Notes under the pieces: generated by a model
What the model saw: the letters and a program-made list of their open reading frames with translations, nothing else
Database searches by the model: none
Told to the model about the DNA's origin: nothing
Part shown: one piece after another, positions 1,239 through 12,912 of the stretch
Layout: every line of letters starts with the position of its first letter
Position numbering within the stretch: the stretch's first letter is position 1
DNA from: Synechococcus sp. JA-3-3Ab
Lineage (GTDB): Bacteria > Cyanobacteriota > Cyanobacteriia > Thermostichales > Thermostichaceae
Direction: 5' to 3'
DNA: 64,000 nucleotides
Assembly: GCF_000013205.1 (NCBI RefSeq)
Contig: NC_007775.1
Location: forward strand, 1,856,501 to 1,920,500
Translations under genes and position numbers: made by a program

Positions 1239-3209
1239 CTAGGAGGCTTCTATAGGGAGAGTATGGCATGCCAGCTTCTGGCAGACAGCCTGGCGCAGGA
1301 AATGAGCTAAGGCCGCCACGCAGTCTTGATCCTCAAGAAGCAGGTCGCGCCGCTCTTGGATTTGCTGAGCGATTTGCTGCCGAAATTGGGGATCCGTTCC
1401 CAGTTGTACGGCCAGCTCTTCGTAGCGCTGGAGGTCTGGGGCAATTAGAAGCTCAAGGCCCATTCTTTTGAGGATGGCGTAGGTGTGGCGGCCCCGCAGG
1501 AACCGGCCAGGGCAGGTGACCACCGGCAAGCCGGCAGCAATGGCTTCCAGGGTGGTGATCCCGCCCGACCAGCCGTAGGAGTCCAGCATGACGTCAGCGC
1601 AGCGATTGAGATCCAGGTAGTCTTGGTGGTCCAAGGCGGGCAGGATTCGACAGTGGTCTTCCACCGCAAGACCATAGCTGGAAAAGATGGAGGCAAGCCG
1701 CTGCCAGAAGCGCTGACCAATGGCAGCATTGGGCAAGGCCAGGAAGACAAATTGGGCCCTGGGCACTTGCCGAGCAATAGCTGGAAAAAGGTAGTCGTAT
1801 TGCGGCAGGTACTTGCCCAAATACTGGCAGGTGAGATAGACAACGGCCTCTTGAGGCAGACCAAAGTCCTGGCGGTAACGTCTCTGGGGAGGCAAAACGG
1901 GCTTTTCAAAACAGGTACCCAGGTGGGGCAGCCGGACCAAGGTTTCGCTGTAGTGGGCCTGCCCATTTTCAGGCTCCATGAGGTCGCTGGAGAGAAAGTA
2001 GTCAATGGTCGACAGTCCCGAAGTAACGGGATGAGCCCAGGTGGAGCATTGGACTGGGGCTAGCCGCAGGGACGCCAGCTGCAACATAAGGGGAGAAAGG
2101 CCAATTTCCAGGTACACCAAAACATCCAGCTGATCCTGCAAAATTTGGCGGGCAGCCTCTTCAAAGCCAGTGGGAATGTGGCGAAAGACGTCGGCATGCT
2201 GACGATATTGCTCCGTCAGGAAATCAACTCTGGGATCCAAGTGATAGGCAAACACCTGGAAAGGCCACTTGGAGCTAGCCTTTAAGTACTTCACCCACCC
2301 CAAAGAAAGGCGGCTGTAAGAGCAAGCGCGCATGGAGGCCGAGACAAACCCAACGCGAATGGGATCCCCTGGCCGGGCTTGCCGGGGGAGATACTCCCAA
2401 TCGGGGTAGGAGGCTTTCACAATGCGCTGCACCAACTGAGCGTATTTCTTCTGCAGCTCCAAGTCGTCGTAGCCCTGGTACTGCAGAAGGTGAGGCGTTC
2501 CCCAACTTGACCCTAAAAAGGCAAGCCGCCGCTGCTCTGGGGTGTCTAGAGGCGTCTCCTGAATGAGGCGATCCAGGTGTTCTACAAAGCGCAAGCGAAA
2601 GCGGTGTAGCTCCTGTTCATCCTGATAGATAGCCGGCAAATAGAGGTGGTAAAGCCAGCGGGCTTGCACCAAGTTAGGATCCAAAGTCCATGCCTTTTCC
2701 AGGTGATCCAGAGCCGCGCTGTGTTCCCCTTGCTCGCGATGGGCTATCCCCAGACAAAAATGCACCTCAGCCCAAGGGATCCCTGCTAGTGGATCTGGAT
2801 TTTCTAACAGGGAGCCCAGCAAGGAGATTGCCTCTTCGTGGCGGCCTAGGTTAACAAGAATCTTGCCCGCTTGAAAGGCAGAAAGGTAAGCCTTGGGATT
2901 GAGGCTCAGGCTCTGCCGATGGCAAGATAGAGCCTTTTCCAGTTGCCCCAAGGACTCATAGACAACGCCCAGGTTGTGATGATAGAGGGCTACGTGGGGA
3001 TTGAGCTCAATGGCCTCGGCAATCAAGGCAGCCGCCCATTCCCCCTCCCCCTTGGCCTGGGCCACCGTCCCCAGCAGGTGCAGGGCATCGGGTTGATCGG
3101 GAAACTCCGCCAGAATTTGCGAGTAAATGGCTTCCGCTGTTCGCAAGTCGCCAGCCTGCTGGGCCTGGATCCCGGCTAGAAGCTTCTCTGTAAGGGCGAG
3201 ATCCGACAT
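1239..3209 (-). CDS. TPR-repeat SPINDLY-type O-GlcNAc transferase-like protein (GT41)
   Basis: The N-terminal part (about residues 1-170 from the chosen start) is tetratricopeptide repeats with typical A/Y/P spacing (DALHLLGTVA, ALYHHNLGVVYESLGQLEKA). The rest matches bacterial SPINDLY/GT41 proteins: IRVGFVSASM, FLSSDLMEPENGQAHYSE, LPHLGTCFEKP, then VMLDSYGWSGGITTLEAIAAG near the C-terminus, the nucleotide-sugar pocket segment. It may transfer a sugar to proteins or to a glycan; the acceptor is unknown. The frame stays open upstream to 3488, but those residues are poor in family features, so the ATG at 3209 (MSDLALTEK) is preferred, giving 656 residues. It lies beside another glycosyltransferase on the opposite strand. 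Confidence 0.8.
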   Translation of the reverse strand: MSDLALTEKLLAGIQAQQAGDLRTAEAIYSQILAEFPDQPDALHLLGTVAQAKGEGEWAAALIAEAIELNPHVALYHHNLGVVYESLGQLEKALSCHRQSLSLNPKAYLSAFQAGKILVNLGRHEEAISLLGSLLENPDPLAGIPWAEVHFCLGIAHREQGEHSAALDHLEKAWTLDPNLVQARWLYHLYLPAIYQDEQELHRFRLRFVEHLDRLIQETPLDTPEQRRLAFLGSSWGTPHLLQYQGYDDLELQKKYAQLVQRIVKASYPDWEYLPRQARPGDPIRVGFVSASMRACSYSRLSLGWVKYLKASSKWPFQVFAYHLDPRVDFLTEQYRQHADVFRHIPTGFEEAARQILQDQLDVLVYLEIGLSPLMLQLASLRLAPVQCSTWAHPVTSGLSTIDYFLSSDLMEPENGQAHYSETLVRLPHLGTCFEKPVLPPQRRYRQDFGLPQEAVVYLTCQYLGKYLPQYDYLFPAIARQVPRAQFVFLALPNAAIGQRFWQRLASIFSSYGLAVEDHCRILPALDHQDYLDLNRCADVMLDSYGWSGGITTLEAIAAGLPVVTCPGRFLRGRHTYAILKRMGLELLIAPDLQRYEELAVQLGTDPQFRQQIAQQIQERRDLLLEDQDCVAALAHFLRQAVCQKLACHTLPIEAS

Positions 3210-3520
3210 CGACAGCCACGGAAGCCGGAGAACTTCCCCCACTATAGGCGCTTCAGCTCTATCCAAAACCCTCCTCACCGCCCCCTGAGCCTCATGTTGC
3301 CAAAAACACAAGAAAACGGTATCCGCAGCTCTGCGAGCGATCCACCAAAACCCCAAAAGGCTGATTCTTTCGTCGGATCCCTCGACGCCTTGCGCCACAA
3401 GGCTTTCAGGCCCCAAAGCCCCCTCGCCAAAGCTCTTTTTGCCAACCTTTTTTCGGATCCCTCGCAAATGGGTCTTGCATCCCTTCATCCCTTGCCCTGC
3501 TTGGGTTTAATGGGGGTAGA
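3210..3520. other. Non-coding stretch between SPINDLY gene and CRISPR remnant
   Basis: About 310 bp with no convincing gene. It would hold the promoter of the minus-strand SPINDLY gene and, if the CRISPR remnant is read on the plus strand, the place where a leader should lie. It contains two GGATCCCT-type octamers. It is not AT-rich and I see no clear leader or promoter. Confidence 0.5.
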
Positions 3521-3635
3521 GTTCCCCCTTCGTGGGGATCCCTAGAAATTGGAAACGACCTCCGAAACAACACATCACTGGGCAAAGCCCAGCATGAAAG
3601 TTCCCCCTTCGTGGGGATCCCTAGAAATTGGAAAC
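3521..3635 (+). CRISPR. Minimal CRISPR array: two identical 36-bp repeats, one 43-bp spacer
   Basis: Two identical 36-bp copies lie at 3521-3556 and 3600-3635, running GTTCCCCCTTCGTGGGG...TAGAAATTGGAAAC, separated by a unique 43-bp spacer (3557-3599). Repeat length, spacer length and the terminal ATTGGAAAC (compare the ATTGAAAC handle common in cyanobacterial repeats) fit CRISPR, with the likely direction on the plus strand. The repeat itself contains the GGGATCCC octamer. No cas gene is in the window. A diverged third copy lies at 4711-4746, beyond a BtuF-like gene. With only two intact repeats, a non-CRISPR dispersed repeat is still possible. Confidence 0.7.
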
Positions 3636-3773
3636 AACCGCCAGGTGCTCCCAAACTTCACGCGCCTGTGCAGCAGCCACAATCGGGCAGTGCTGTACGC
3701 GCTAGAAGACTTCGGGCTCGAGTATGACGCCGTCCAGGCCCACAACCCTATCGAAAGCAGCATCAAAGCTTAG
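3636..3773 (+). pseudogene. Unidentified coding remnant directly after the CRISPR repeat
   Basis: The frame running out of the second repeat encodes about 45 residues ending in VLYALEDFGLEYDAVQ and a TAG at 3771-3773. The stretch looks protein-like rather than random, but I recognise no family. Its stop overlaps the TAA of the convergent BtuF-like gene. It may be the 3' tail of a lost gene left by a deletion or by recombination at the repeats. Low confidence. Confidence 0.25.
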
Positions 3774-4591
3774 GCGGAGGATTGGGCCTCCCAGCGGTCA
3801 AAGATCTGCAGCAGCAACTGCACCCCATCGGTCAAGGCAGCCGGACCGGGCTGCAGAATCACCTCTGACGGCAGCTCGTAGACGTGTCCGCTCCAGACCG
3901 CCGGGATAGTCTCCCACCCAGGGCGGCTGTGAAGCCGCTCAGGCTTGAACCTCTTGCCACACCAGGACACCAGGATGATGTCTGGAGCGCGCCGCACGAC
4001 CTCTGCCGGTTCAGCTATAATCCGGCGCCGTGCATCGGGATAGGCACTGAATTCGGAAAAGATGTCTTCAGCTCCACACAAACGAATGAGTTCGCTGATC
4101 CAGCCGATGCCTGTAATCAAGGGGTCGTCCCACTCCTCGAAGTAGACCCGTGGACGGCGGCGCCGTTGCTGTCCACGCTGCATAGCTCGGTGCAATCCCT
4201 CCCGCAAGGAGCGCACATATGCCCGTGCCTGAGCAGCTCGCCCTACCAGTGCCCCAAGGCGCAGGATCATGGAGAGGATCCCCTCAACCGTGCGCTGGTT
4301 GAAGCAGACAACCTCCACCCCCTGGCGAATGAGCTCAGCGCAAATGTTTGCCTGCAGATCCGACCATGCAAGCACAACATCGGGCTGCAGCGCCAAAATC
4401 CGTTCGATGTTGGCATCCAGAAGGGTGGACACCTTCGGCTTCTTCCGCGCCTCCGGCGGACGCACCGTAAATCCAGAAATGCCGACGACGAGATCCCCAG
4501 CCCCCAAGGCGTAGAGCGTCTCTGCCGTCTCCTCCGTCAAGCACACGATGCGCTCTGGCAATCGCGGTCGCGGAACATGTCTGCCAATCAT
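3770..4591 (-). CDS. BtuF-like periplasmic-binding-fold protein, cobalamin/iron-siderophore type, without signal peptide
   Basis: The sequence follows the BtuF/TroA-like fold: ERIVCLTEETAETLYALGAGDLVVGIS, then LLDANIERILALQPDVVLAW and a C-terminal PDIILVSWCG. Such proteins bind vitamin B12 or iron chelates for ABC import. No secretion signal or lipobox is visible, so this one may work in the cytoplasm or belong to the signal-less cobalamin-binding subgroup. The ATG at 4591 is preferred; a TTG at 4630 would add 13 residues. No BtuC or BtuD permease or ATPase genes flank it. It sits alone between CRISPR-like repeats at 3600-3635 and 4711-4746, which suggests capture or rearrangement. Confidence 0.7.
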   Translation of the reverse strand: MIGRHVPRPRLPERIVCLTEETAETLYALGAGDLVVGISGFTVRPPEARKKPKVSTLLDANIERILALQPDVVLAWSDLQANICAELIRQGVEVVCFNQRTVEGILSMILRLGALVGRAAQARAYVRSLREGLHRAMQRGQQRRRRPRVYFEEWDDPLITGIGWISELIRLCGAEDIFSEFSAYPDARRRIIAEPAEVVRRAPDIILVSWCGKRFKPERLHSRPGWETIPAVWSGHVYELPSEVILQPGPAALTDGVQLLLQIFDRWEAQSSA

Positions 4592-4710
4592 CGGGATTTC
4601 TTCGAGCGAGTCTACGAACTGGTTTGCCAAATGGGCGCTCTAGGCTGCCCGCTTCGATGCCTCACCCCGACGCTCATGCAAGAGCTCTCGCAGTGGGAAG
4701 GGGTTCAATG

Positions 4711-4746
4711 CAAGACGACTGCGGGGGGTTCCTAGAAATTGGAGAC
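4711..4746 (+). repeat. Degenerate third copy of the CRISPR-like repeat
   Basis: The last 23 bases, GGGGGTTCCTAGAAATTGG then AGAC, match the 3' portion of the 36-bp repeat at 20 positions by eye; the 5' portion is lost. It is in the same orientation as the two intact repeats and ends four bases before the crtH stop codon. A diverged terminal repeat is common at the leader-distal end of arrays. Confidence 0.6.
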
Positions 4747-4750
4747 AGCT

Positions 4751-6310
4751 TTAGGAGAAGTCCGCCGCTACCCGGTGGGCGCAGGCAAACCCAGAGAAAG
4801 CGACAGCGTTGAGTCCCTGGCCGGGGAAGGTGCTATCCCCCACGCAGTAGAGGTTGGGGATGGCGGTGCGGTTGAAGGGCATGCCCAAGAGTCCCCAGGG
4901 AGTGCCGCGAGGGATGGGGCCGTAGGTGCCGTCGACGCGGCCCAAGAAGCGGCGGTGGGTGCGGGGGGTGCCCACTTCCTGCAGTTCAATGTGGGATCCC
5001 AGACCAGGCCAGAGGGCCTCCAGGCGGCGGATGAGACGCTCGGCTGCCGCTTGTTTTTGCTGCCGGTACTGCTCTGGGCTCAAGCCCTGCCAAGTCTGCA
5101 TCCAACTGGGGGTAAAGGCGTGGACAATGTGGCGGCCTGGTGGGGCCAGCTCCGGATCCAAAAGGGTGGGGATGGAGACGAAGATCGTGCCCTGCTCCGC
5201 CTCCAGGTCTTGCCAATCTTCTAGAAGAATGTGGTGGCAGTAGCGCTCGCCGGCCAGAGGCTCGGCCCGCACCCCCAAGTGCAGGCTTAAGAAACTGGGG
5301 GACTGTTGATAACGGCTTTGCCAGCGCCGCTCCGCTGCCGGAAAGGGTCCTGGCCAGAGGCGGCCAAAGGTATCCCAGCGGGTGGCATTGGAGATGATCT
5401 TGCGCGCAAAGAGCTTTTCCCCCGTGGAGAGCTCGACGCCCACGGCCCGGCCCCGTTCTGCCAAAATCCGCCGCACCGACGCTCGGTAGCGGATTTGCCC
5501 CCCGCAGGTCTCTAGCCCCTGGGCCAGCTTTTGAGCAATCTGCCCCACCCCTCCCTTGGGGTAGTTGACGCCACCGTAGTGGCGGTCGCAGAACACCATG
5601 CCGGCGTTGATCATGGGCGTGCGCTCCGCCGGCACCACCGACCAGCAGTAGCACTCCATATCCACAAAGCGCAGCAGCGCCGGATGGCGGAGGTGGCGCC
5701 GCGCCACCTGGCCCACATTGGCCGGCAAATAGCGGGCCAAAGTCAGGCAGGCGCGGGGGTTGCCGACAAAAGAGCGCCAGAGATAGCCCCACTCCTCCAA
5801 AGAGAGCAGCTCCATGGCGTTGAGGCTGTTGAAGATAGGCCAGAAGCTGTCGTAGAAACGGCGGATGCCGCCCGCTTCCTGAGGGAAATAGCTAGCTAGC
5901 TCCTGCAAAAACTCCTCGTAGTTCCGGTGTACGCGCGGGCTGAGCCCCTGGGGCAGGTGGTAGGCAATCTGCACCGGGTCGGGGATGGAGTCCAAAGACT
6001 GGCCCACGGCAGCCAAGGCGCGGGTAAGCAGGTTGGTGGTGCCCTGCCTGCCCAGGCCAAAGATCATGGAAGCCCCGACGTCGAAGCGGTAGATCCCGTT
6101 GCCGTTGGGATCCGGGCGCTCAAAGTAGCCGGCGCTGCCACCAGGGATGAGGTATTTTTCCAGCACCAACACCCGGTAGCCCTTGGCCGCCAACTGGGTG
6201 GCCGCCACCAGGCCGCCAATCCCAGCGCCAATGACAATGACATCCCAAACAGAAGGGGGGGAAGCAGGAGGTGCCGTAGCTTGAGGTCGAGAAAACAGCG
6301 TTTGGGTCAA
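4751..6310 (-). CDS. crtH: Carotenoid (prolycopene) cis-trans isomerase CrtISO/CrtH
   Basis: A 519-residue FAD-dependent enzyme. [20 protein letters not shown] (about 22-41) is the dinucleotide-binding motif, followed by [16 protein letters not shown]. The C-terminal [22 protein letters not shown] is the FAD/CrtI-family signature. Length and the EC(Y/F)[18 protein letters not shown] region fit cyanobacterial CrtH, which converts tetra-cis-lycopene to all-trans-lycopene at the thylakoid membrane, as opposed to bacterial CrtI desaturase. It stands alone, with a CRISPR-like repeat just downstream and potB-potA upstream on the same strand. Confidence 0.9.
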
Positions 6311-10200: not shown

Positions 10201-12912
10201 ATGGACCTCATCTTGTGTCATCAGTCAGCAGATTTCGACACCCTAGGGGCGGCAGTGGGGGCAGCCCGACTCTACCCTAGCGCCCGCATTGCCTTGACTG
10301 GCGGATCCCTGCCGGGAGTGCAGGAGTTCTTGGCCCTCTACCGGGACGAGTTTCCCCTCATCGAGCTGCGTTCGGTGGATCCCCGCCAGGTCCAGCGCTG
10401 GATCCTGGTGGATTGTTACGACCCGGATCGCCTCGGTAAGGCTGCTGCCTGGCTGAGCGTTCCTGGGGCGAAGATCGAGATTTTCGACCACCACCTGCCG
10501 GCCACCCCGCTGGAAGAGCTGTGGCCGCAGCAGCAGGTCAGCGCTCACATTGAGGCGGTGGGCTCCACCTGTACCCTCCTGGTGGAGCGGCTGCAGGGGG
10601 CCGGGATCCGCCTCAGCCCTTTCGAGCGGCTGGCGCTGGCCTTGGGCCTCCACATGGACACGGGATCCCTGACCTTCCCGGAGACCACCGCCCGCGATGC
10701 CGCCGCCCTCACCTGGCTGATGCGTCAGGGAGTCAACCTGGTGGTGCTGCGGCGCTTTTTGGGCGATGGCCTCACCCCCCCGATGCAGGAACTGCTCAGC
10801 CAGGGACTGGCCCAGATGCAGGTGGAGGCGGTGGGGGAGTACCGCTTGGGAACGTGGCTGCTGGAGCTGCCGGAGTTTGTGCCCGGCTTGGCCGGCCTGG
10901 TGATGCGGCTAATGGATCTGACAGGGGTGGACGTGCTGCTCTTGGTGGCACGACAGGGGGAGCGGCTTAGCCTCATCGGGCGGGCGCGGCAGGAGTTTGC
11001 CCAACTGGGCCGAGTGATGGCCCGCTACGGTGGCGGCGGCCACGACTGTGCGGCAGCCGCTACCCTAAAAGCTTCTCCAGACCAGCCCCTGCCCGATCCC
11101 GCCCAGGTGCTGAGCGACCTCAGCCAGGCGGTTAAAGAGCGGATCCCGCCGCCTGTGACGGCCAAGGATTTGATGTCCTCGCCGGTGCGCACCATCCGAC
11201 CGGAGGTTACTATCCAGGAGGCGCAGCGGGTGCTGCTGCGCTATGGCCACTCCGGCCTGGTGGTGGTGGATGGCCAGGGCCGCCTGGTGGGAGTGATCTC
11301 GCGGCGAGATATCGACATTGCCCTGCACCACGGCTTTGGCCATGCCCCCGTCAAGGGCTACATGACTACCGACGTCAAGACCCTCTCCCCCGACACGCCC
11401 CTGGCGGAGATCCAGCGGCTGATGGTGCAGTGGGACATTGGCCGTCTGCCAGTGCTCCAGGATGGCCAGTTGGTGGGGATCGTTACCCGCACCGATGTGT
11501 TGCGACACCTGCACCAGCTGCCGGCCCTCTCACCCCAGTTGGCTTCTCCTGCTCTCTCTTGTCCTTTGGATCTCACCTTTGCCGCTCTCTCGCCGCAGCA
11601 CCGCCGGCTGCTAGAGGAAGCTGCCCGAATTGCCGATGAAAAGGGTCTGCGGCTGTATCTGGTGGGGGGGGCGGTGCGGGATCTGCTGCTGCACCGGTGG
11701 GGACGGCAGCCCTCCTCTTGCCTGGAACGGCTGGATTTGGATTTGGTGGTGGATGGGCCTTACCCCTCGACCCCCCAAGGGACGGATCCGCCGGGCTGGG
11801 GGTTGATCCTGGGAAAAGCCCTCAAGCAGCACTTCCCGGAGGCACGCCTGGAGATCCACGGCAAGTTTCAGACGGCAGCCCTGATCTGGCCAGGGGGCTT
11901 TTGTGTGGATATTGCCAGCGCCCGCACCGAGTTTTACCCCTACCCGGCCTCGCCCCCTGAAGTGGCCATGGGATCCATCCATCAGGATCTCTACCGGCGG
12001 GATTTTTCCATCAATGCGCTGGCTTTGCGCCTCAACGGCCCGCAGCGGGGGCAGTTGCTGGACTTTTTCGGCGGGCAAGCGGATCTGCAAAAGGGGATCA
12101 TCCGCGCCCTCCACCCCAACAGCTTCATCGAGGATCCCACCCGCATCTACCGGGCCGTCCGCTTTGCCGTGCACCTGGGCTTTGCCCTGGATCCGACCAC
12201 CGAAGAATGGATTCGCACGGCTGTAGCCAGCGGCCTCCACGATGCCGTTGGCGGGGAGCGCCTCAAGCAGGAGCTGGCCTACATCCTCCGCTCCCGCGAC
12301 TGGCCCTTGGCTTTTGAGCGGCTGGCGGCATGGGGAGCCCTGCGCTGCATTCACCCCGCTTTGACCTGGGATCCCTCCCTGTACCGGCGGCTGCAGCGGG
12401 TGGGCCGCTGGGCCTATCACTTCCGCCGCCGCTACCCCGAGCTGGGATCCCAGGAGATCTGGCAACTGCGCCTGGAAGCCTTGCTCTTGCCCCTGCCCCA
12501 GGCACCCCAGGTAGCCAGCCAGCTCCACCTCACCCAAGCGGGCATCGAACGCCTCAGCCATTTCTCCCACTACCAAGCCCTCTTGGCCCAACTGGAGACC
12601 GGATCCCTGTCTCCGGCTCAGGTAGTACGGCTGCTGCAGGGGCTGCGCATCCCGGCGGTGATCCTGTTGGCAGGGCTGGCCGCCAAGCCAGCGCGGCGGC
12701 TGCTCTGGCGCTACTTGCAGGAGTGGCATTGGGTGAAGCCACCCCTCAACGGGCACGATTTGCGTTGCCTGGGCTACAAGCCGGGCCCTCTTTTTCAGGA
12801 GATCTTGGAGCGCCTGCGCTGCCTCACCCTCAACGGCGAGCTTACCACTCGCGCTGAGGCAGAAGCCTGGCTGCGGAAACACTTCCCCTTGCTGCAATCT
12901 CAGCCAAAGTAG
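10201..12912 (+). CDS. DHH phosphoesterase / CBS pair / class II tRNA nucleotidyltransferase fusion (A-adding or poly(A) polymerase type)
   Basis: A 903-residue fusion. Residues 1-310 form a DHH/DHHA1 phosphoesterase (HQSADFDTLGAA at 7-18, FDHHLP at 96-101, GGGGHDCAAAAT near 277). Residues about 320-440 are two CBS domains (LMSSPVRTIRPEVTIQEA, YMTTDVKTLSPDTPLAEI). From about 470 there is a PcnB/Cca nucleotidyltransferase (LYLVGGAVRDLLL, LDLDLVVDGPYP, RRDFSINALAL, EDPTRIYRAVRFA). This architecture is known in cyanobacteria and some other bacteria and is linked to the A-adding half of split CCA synthesis. Whether it also polyadenylates RNA cannot be told. CBS domains suggest adenylate sensing, by inference. 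Confidence 0.88.
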   Translation: MDLILCHQSADFDTLGAAVGAARLYPSARIALTGGSLPGVQEFLALYRDEFPLIELRSVDPRQVQRWILVDCYDPDRLGKAAAWLSVPGAKIEIFDHHLPATPLEELWPQQQVSAHIEAVGSTCTLLVERLQGAGIRLSPFERLALALGLHMDTGSLTFPETTARDAAALTWLMRQGVNLVVLRRFLGDGLTPPMQELLSQGLAQMQVEAVGEYRLGTWLLELPEFVPGLAGLVMRLMDLTGVDVLLLVARQGERLSLIGRARQEFAQLGRVMARYGGGGHDCAAAATLKASPDQPLPDPAQVLSDLSQAVKERIPPPVTAKDLMSSPVRTIRPEVTIQEAQRVLLRYGHSGLVVVDGQGRLVGVISRRDIDIALHHGFGHAPVKGYMTTDVKTLSPDTPLAEIQRLMVQWDIGRLPVLQDGQLVGIVTRTDVLRHLHQLPALSPQLASPALSCPLDLTFAALSPQHRRLLEEAARIADEKGLRLYLVGGAVRDLLLHRWGRQPSSCLERLDLDLVVDGPYPSTPQGTDPPGWGLILGKALKQHFPEARLEIHGKFQTAALIWPGGFCVDIASARTEFYPYPASPPEVAMGSIHQDLYRRDFSINALALRLNGPQRGQLLDFFGGQADLQKGIIRALHPNSFIEDPTRIYRAVRFAVHLGFALDPTTEEWIRTAVASGLHDAVGGERLKQELAYILRSRDWPLAFERLAAWGALRCIHPALTWDPSLYRRLQRVGRWAYHFRRRYPELGSQEIWQLRLEALLLPLPQAPQVASQLHLTQAGIERLSHFSHYQALLAQLETGSLSPAQVVRLLQGLRIPAVILLAGLAAKPARRLLWRYLQEWHWVKPPLNGHDLRCLGYKPGPLFQEILERLRCLTLNGELTTRAEAEAWLRKHFPLLQSQPK

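What the first reader, a model, noticed from the sequence alone, without database searches (positions are those of the whole stretch)
3521..4746. BtuF-like gene sits between CRISPR repeats of one locus
Two perfect 36-bp repeats lie on one side of a stand-alone BtuF-like gene and a third, degenerate copy in the same orientation lies on the other side, 1.08 kb away. Normal spacers are 30-45 bp, so a whole gene (plus an unidentified coding tail at 3636-3773) occupies a spacer position. The gene has no transporter partners and no signal peptide. This may be a collapsed array into which a gene was inserted, or recombination between arrays that left cargo. No cas genes are nearby.
Basis: partly seen in the sequence, partly recalled or inferred. 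Interest (0 to 1): 0.72.

Follow-up and report, generated by a model that had tools for sequence, protein, structure and literature searches.

The report
Foreign gene lodged in decayed CRISPR array
A known, shrunken CRISPR array of a hot-spring cyanobacterium has been broken open by a 1-kb piece of chromosome from an unrelated bacterium carrying one intact B12-binding-like gene, which looks like a chance gene-transfer event rather than a new kind of system.

Summary
The repeats are real. They are CRISPR-IIC of Synechococcus OS-A (JA-3-3Ab): a conserved leader (3293-3520), two perfect 36-nt repeats, spacers of 43 and 37 nt, then about 1.05 kb of other DNA, then the last ~23 nt of a third repeat. 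The genome has four more arrays of this repeat, one beside a type III-B (Cmr) cas operon. Heidelberg et al. 2009 described the array; I found no mention of the insert in its text. The insert is 88% identical, without gaps over 960 bp, to a chromosomal stretch of a Bacteroidota MAG. There the BtuF-like gene sits between an alkyltransferase-like (atl/ogt) gene and thiamine diphosphokinase (tpk), an order kept in two relatives of that MAG. So a random foreign fragment lodged in a collapsing array. Two congeners have crtH next to the glycosyltransferase gene with no array and no btuF. A second array of the same genome (IIA) carries a 1,146-bp interval with an oxygenase gene, and cas1 beside it has an in-frame stop. 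The likeliest route is end joining of transferred DNA; integration by Cas1-Cas2 is unlikely but not excluded.

The parts
3293..3520 (+). CRISPR leader, about 228 bp, shared by the type-II-repeat arrays of OS-A and OS-B'; carries an 8-bp tandem duplication (CATCCCTT) near the first repeat
   Evidence: Alignment to 8 other leaders, 77-87% identity, homology starts at ~3287-3305
3521..3556 (+). CRISPR repeat 1 (36 nt; one-base variant CGTGGGG of the genome consensus CGGGGGG)
3557..3599 (+). spacer 1, 43 nt
   Evidence: no exact core match in IMG/VR, no self match
3600..3635 (+). CRISPR repeat 2 (identical to repeat 1)
3636..3672 (+). probable spacer 2, 37 nt up to the point where donor homology begins
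   Evidence: No homology to donor; length in the normal 33-48 range; no exact core match in IMG/VR
3673..4723 (.). foreign fragment, ~1.05 kb, from a Bacteroidota chromosome
   Evidence: 3673-4632 aligns without gaps at 88% to L065 5958-4999; rest aligns around two deletions of ~76 and ~60 bp
   Evidence: tblastn 77% over residues 3-37; translation with stop
3770..4630 (-). intact cytosolic BtuF-like (Peripla_BP_2) gene, 286 aa; true start may be the ATG at 4591
   Evidence: PF01497; 88% protein identity to L065; nearest solved structures are B12-binding proteins
4547..4723 (+). remnant of an alkyltransferase-like (ogt/atl, PF01035 DNA_binding_1) gene with two internal deletions, truncated
   Evidence: Donor gene identified as PF01035/TIGR00589; remnant alignment
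4724..4746 (+). 3' remnant of the last CRISPR repeat
   Evidence: GGGGGTTCCTAGAAATTGGAGAC, 3 mismatches to the repeat
4751..6310 (-). crtH carotenoid isomerase (native flank; stop codon ends 4 nt from the repeat remnant)
   Evidence: TIGR02730 848 bits; 82-87% in all five congeners
1239..3209 (-). TPR / glycosyltransferase family 41 gene (native flank); the longer ORF to 3488 only reads the leader
   Evidence: Pfam; adjacent to crtH in G003 and G005; likely start at 3209

Best explanation
This is CRISPR-IIC of Synechococcus OS-A, an orphan array that can be served only in trans, by the type III-B (Cmr) genes at array IIA. A leader-plus-array unit moved into the crtH-glycosyltransferase junction (shown by comparison with congeners; how it moved is unknown). 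The array later shrank, and a ~1.05-kb fragment of a Bacteroidota chromosome was joined into it, between spacer 2 and the 3' half of the last repeat. The joining was most likely done by end joining of incoming DNA at a break in the array (inferred), with loss of the first part of that repeat and perhaps of further units. The fragment carries one complete gene, a stand-alone cytosolic protein of the BtuF fold, and broken ends of its two donor neighbours. The gene is a bystander that may be expressed or simply has not decayed yet. The two leader-proximal repeats can still give crRNAs (inferred).
For: Same repeat in five arrays, coordinates matching Table 1 of PMC2612747. Shared leader. Cmr2/3/4/6, Cas1 and Cas2 beside IIA. 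Insert is 88% identical without gaps over 960 bp to L065. Order atl-btuF-tpk conserved in L172 and L173, so transfer ran from Bacteroidota to Synechococcus. Tree puts the protein with L065 (99/95) inside that clade and away from the BtuF-like proteins of its own genus. No comparable gene in the five congeners, best 23-24% identity. crtH followed by the glycosyltransferase gene, no array, in G003 and G005. Both donor neighbours truncated. Right junction inside a repeat; donor ...GCG and the repeat's CG allow a 2-bp overlap.
Against: The true donor from the same spring is not in hand; L065 is a 12%-diverged relative, so junctions are inferred. Route of entry and time of array shrinkage are not shown. 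The left junction falls where a spacer would end, which a purely random break would not predict. A second array of the same genome also holds a ~1.1-kb gene-bearing interval, which hints at something less random. Low dN/dS (0.26 on the window branch) could mean the gene is used, but that branch includes time in the donor lineage.
Confidence: 0.8

Rival explanations
1. The CRISPR adaptation machinery (Cas1-Cas2) itself integrated a very long fragment as an abnormal spacer, and the 3' repeat later decayed.
For: The fragment begins where a 37-nt spacer ends; a second array (IIA) has a 1,146-bp gene-bearing interval bounded exactly by two full repeats.
Against: Other intervals in the arrays checked in three genomes are 33-48 nt apart from one of 69; the fragment is not leader-proximal, abuts a spacer rather than a repeat, and the downstream repeat lacks its 5' part; cas1 at IIA has an in-frame stop and cas1 at IA is interrupted (PMC2612747).
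Confidence: 0.06
2. The insert is a mobile gene cassette or element that targets CRISPR arrays or carries the BtuF-like gene as cargo.
For: Two gene-bearing inserts of similar size in one genome.
Against: No second copy in the genome, no DNA match in phages and no relative in viral contigs, only weak partial matches in plasmids; no transposase or integrase; ends cut through donor genes; the two inserts share no sequence.
Confidence: 0.04
3. The BtuF-like gene has been recruited and is kept under selection in the cyanobacterium, for instance in cobalamin or haem handling (compatible with the best explanation of how it arrived).
For: Complete ORF between two decayed neighbours; syn/nonsyn changes 22/17 on the window branch, ratio 0.26.
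Against: The branch includes donor-lineage time; ratio not clearly different from the donor branch (21/9); the region upstream of the gene is altered by a ~76-bp deletion; no expression data.
Confidence: 0.3

Closest known systems
CRISPR-IIC of Synechococcus OS-A (JA-3-3Ab), Heidelberg et al. 2009, PMC2612747
   Same: Same locus: two repeats at 1860020-1860135, same repeat sequence
   Different: The paper's text lists two repeats only; it does not mention the degenerate third repeat, the foreign fragment or its donor. Its Figure 3 and supplements could not be read here, so the gene itself may be drawn there
Type III-B (Cmr) CRISPR-Cas at array IIA of the same genome
   Same: Same repeat family and leader family
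   Different: IIC is an orphan array ~700 kb away, with a leader closer to three OS-B' arrays (84-87%) than to IIA (80%)
Stand-alone 'cobalamin-binding proteins' (PF01497, BtuF-like) of Gammaproteobacteria and Bacteroidota
   Same: 53-90% protein identity; matches start at residue ~25 in most
   Different: Only in OS-A among the genomes of its genus searched

Membership tests
CRISPR array (type III-B-linked 36-nt repeat) | Identical direct repeats with short unique spacers | tested here: met
   Two perfect repeats, spacers of 43 and (probably) 37 nt
CRISPR array (type III-B-linked 36-nt repeat) | Conserved leader upstream of the first repeat | tested here: met
   3293-3520, 77-87% to 8 other leaders
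CRISPR array (type III-B-linked 36-nt repeat) | cas operon in the genome associated with the same repeat | tested here: met
   Cmr2/3/4/6, Cas1, Cas2 next to array IIA; cas1 there has a stop
CRISPR array (type III-B-linked 36-nt repeat) | crRNA production from 3521-3635 | not testable with these tools
   Needs small RNA data
BtuF (vitamin B12 ABC transporter substrate-binding protein) | Peripla_BP_2 fold | tested here: met
   PF01497 147 bits; nearest solved structures BtuF
BtuF (vitamin B12 ABC transporter substrate-binding protein) | Above NCBIfam BtuF equivalog cut-off | tested here: not met
   PRK03379 81 bits against a cut-off of 234
BtuF (vitamin B12 ABC transporter substrate-binding protein) | Signal peptide and adjacent BtuCD | tested here: not met
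   No N-terminal hydrophobic stretch (read by eye, no signal-peptide program run); immediate neighbours are atl and tpk remnants and crtH
Integrated mobile element | Integrase/transposase, terminal repeats or target-site duplication | tested here: not met
   None seen in 3636-4746; single copy

The most novel reading that the evidence does not exclude
CRISPR arrays of this lineage act as preferred entry points for kilobase-sized foreign DNA (by an aberrant Cas1-Cas2 reaction or by breaks made at the repeats), so that whole genes end up in spacer positions; two of five arrays in OS-A would be examples.
Probability: 0.07. Interest if true: 0.75.

Novelty: new member of a known kind. Interest (0 to 1): 0.33.

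Why it matters
It gives a resolved case of DNA from another phylum entering a dominant hot-spring cyanobacterium, with a near donor and with the host site as it looks in congeners without the array. It also warns that CRISPR spacer positions can hold kilobase inserts that array finders split or drop: CRISPRdb gives the IIA array two separate IDs (PMC2612747 Table 1), and IIC is listed as only two repeats. If the coincidence of two gene-bearing arrays in one genome held up in more strains, it would point to arrays as fragile or receptive sites for incoming DNA.

Tried and rejected
Mobile element or phage origin: no relative in viral contigs and no DNA match in phages, only weak (22-32%) protein matches to ordinary BtuF-type genes in records of the phage collection, weak partial matches in plasmids. 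Protospacers of spacers 1 and 2: no exact core match in IMG/VR. A coding ORF in the leader: the frame is not kept among leaders. Phage origin of the IIA insert: no phage hits; its protein is nearest to other cyanobacteria, up to 59%, and DNA matches are weak. Domestication of btuF: not decided by dN/dS because the branch includes donor time. Literature searches for genes inside CRISPR arrays gave nothing on point.

Full report
The locus. The window lies at 1856501-1920500 of a 2,932,766-bp genome. The repeat positions agree with Table 1 of Heidelberg et al. 2009 (PMC2612747), so the genome is Synechococcus OS-A (JA-3-3Ab) and the array is their CRISPR-IIC. The repeat occurs in five arrays: 6, 2 plus the remnant (here), 2, 16 and 11 copies found with up to two mismatches in a 16-nt core. 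It is not a dispersed repeat. The copies here carry a one-base variant (CGTGGGG instead of CGGGGGG).

It is a genuine array with a leader. Positions 3293-3520 align with the leaders of the other four OS-A arrays and four OS-B' arrays, and homology starts near 3293 in most pairs. The IIC leader is closer to three orphan arrays of OS-B' (84-87%) than to those of OS-A (77-80%). The cas operon next to array IIA is type III-B: Cmr2, Cmr3, Cmr4, Cmr6, Cas1 and Cas2 (Cmr3 and Cmr6 are below their NCBIfam cut-offs).

What sits between the repeats. Window 3673-4632 aligns to L065 (a Bacteroidota MAG, isolate JZ-1; a hot-spring source is my guess from the name) without a gap over 960 bp at 88%. The alignment then continues around two deletions of about 76 and 60 bp until about 4723. 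In L065 the order is an alkyltransferase-like gene (PF01035, ogt/atl), the BtuF-like gene and thiamine diphosphokinase. The same order is kept in two members of the same class, L172 and L173. The direction of transfer is therefore from Bacteroidota to Synechococcus. In the window the kinase is cut and has a stop, atl is deleted and cut, and only btuF is whole. A tree places the protein with L065 (support 99/95); the other BtuF-like proteins of the genus are 23-24% identical.

Junctions. Left: repeat 2, then 37 nt without donor homology (a normal spacer length), then donor DNA. Right: donor DNA up to about 4723, then the last 23 nt of a repeat (3 mismatches), then 4 nt, then the crtH stop codon. 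I see no terminal repeat and no target duplication; a 2-bp overlap (CG) is possible at the right junction.

Site without the array. In G003 and G005, crtH is followed directly by the TPR-glycosyltransferase gene, without array or btuF. Homology of the glycosyltransferase side reaches window 3239. So an array unit first entered this junction and the foreign fragment entered the array later. Heidelberg et al. report a metagenome clone with 11 repeats at this site, consistent with collapse in the isolate; growth in the other cells is equally possible.

A second case. Array IIA of the same genome has 1,146 bp between two full repeats, with a 299-aa 2OG-Fe(II) oxygenase gene (PF13640) and G+C of 51% against 60% for the window. 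OS-B' has no such interval in IIA. Over the arrays checked in three genomes, 150 intervals are ordinary (33-48 nt, one of 69) and two exceed 1 kb, both in OS-A. The two inserts share no sequence. I do not know how the second arose. Cas1 at IIA has an in-frame TAA where OS-B' has glutamine, and cas1 at IA is interrupted (PMC2612747; split hits), so adaptation may be impaired in this isolate.

Mechanism. Shown: array, leader, foreign origin, truncated neighbours, site without array. Inferred: uptake of free DNA and end joining at a break in the array; expression of btuF; crRNA production.

Verdict. A real and well-resolved gene transfer into a known, decaying CRISPR array. The pieces are ordinary; their coincidence, twice in one genome, is the only unusual point.

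Noticed in passing
L034:9626-10771 (genome 2558125-2559270): A 1,146-bp interval with an intact 2OG-Fe(II) oxygenase gene, bounded by two full repeats, inside array IIA next to the type III-B cas operon; absent from OS-B' array IIA.
   Followed up: partly
L034:11486-12475 (genome ~2560 kb): cas1 of the type III-B locus has an in-frame TAA at codon 104 where OS-B' has glutamine.
   Followed up: partly
L034 leader and L159 leader: The IIA leaders of OS-A and OS-B' are nearly identical (99-100%) although the two genomes average 86% (PMC2612747): recent exchange or strong constraint.
   Followed up: no
L161 (G004 2292764-2292779): An isolated 16-nt 3' half of the repeat with unrelated sequence upstream in OS-B', similar to the repeat remnant at window 4724-4746.
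   Followed up: no
window 3210-3488: The longest ORF of the glycosyltransferase gene reads antisense through the CRISPR leader; its start is probably at 3209, so the first 93 residues would be an annotation artefact.
   Followed up: partly
window 3578-3592: Spacer 1 contains a perfect inverted repeat CTGGGC-AAA-GCCCAG; one near copy lies at 12175-12189.
   Followed up: no
L033, just upstream of the first repeat of array IIE: The leader of array IIE lacks about 70-80 bp next to the first repeat compared with the other leaders.
   Followed up: no
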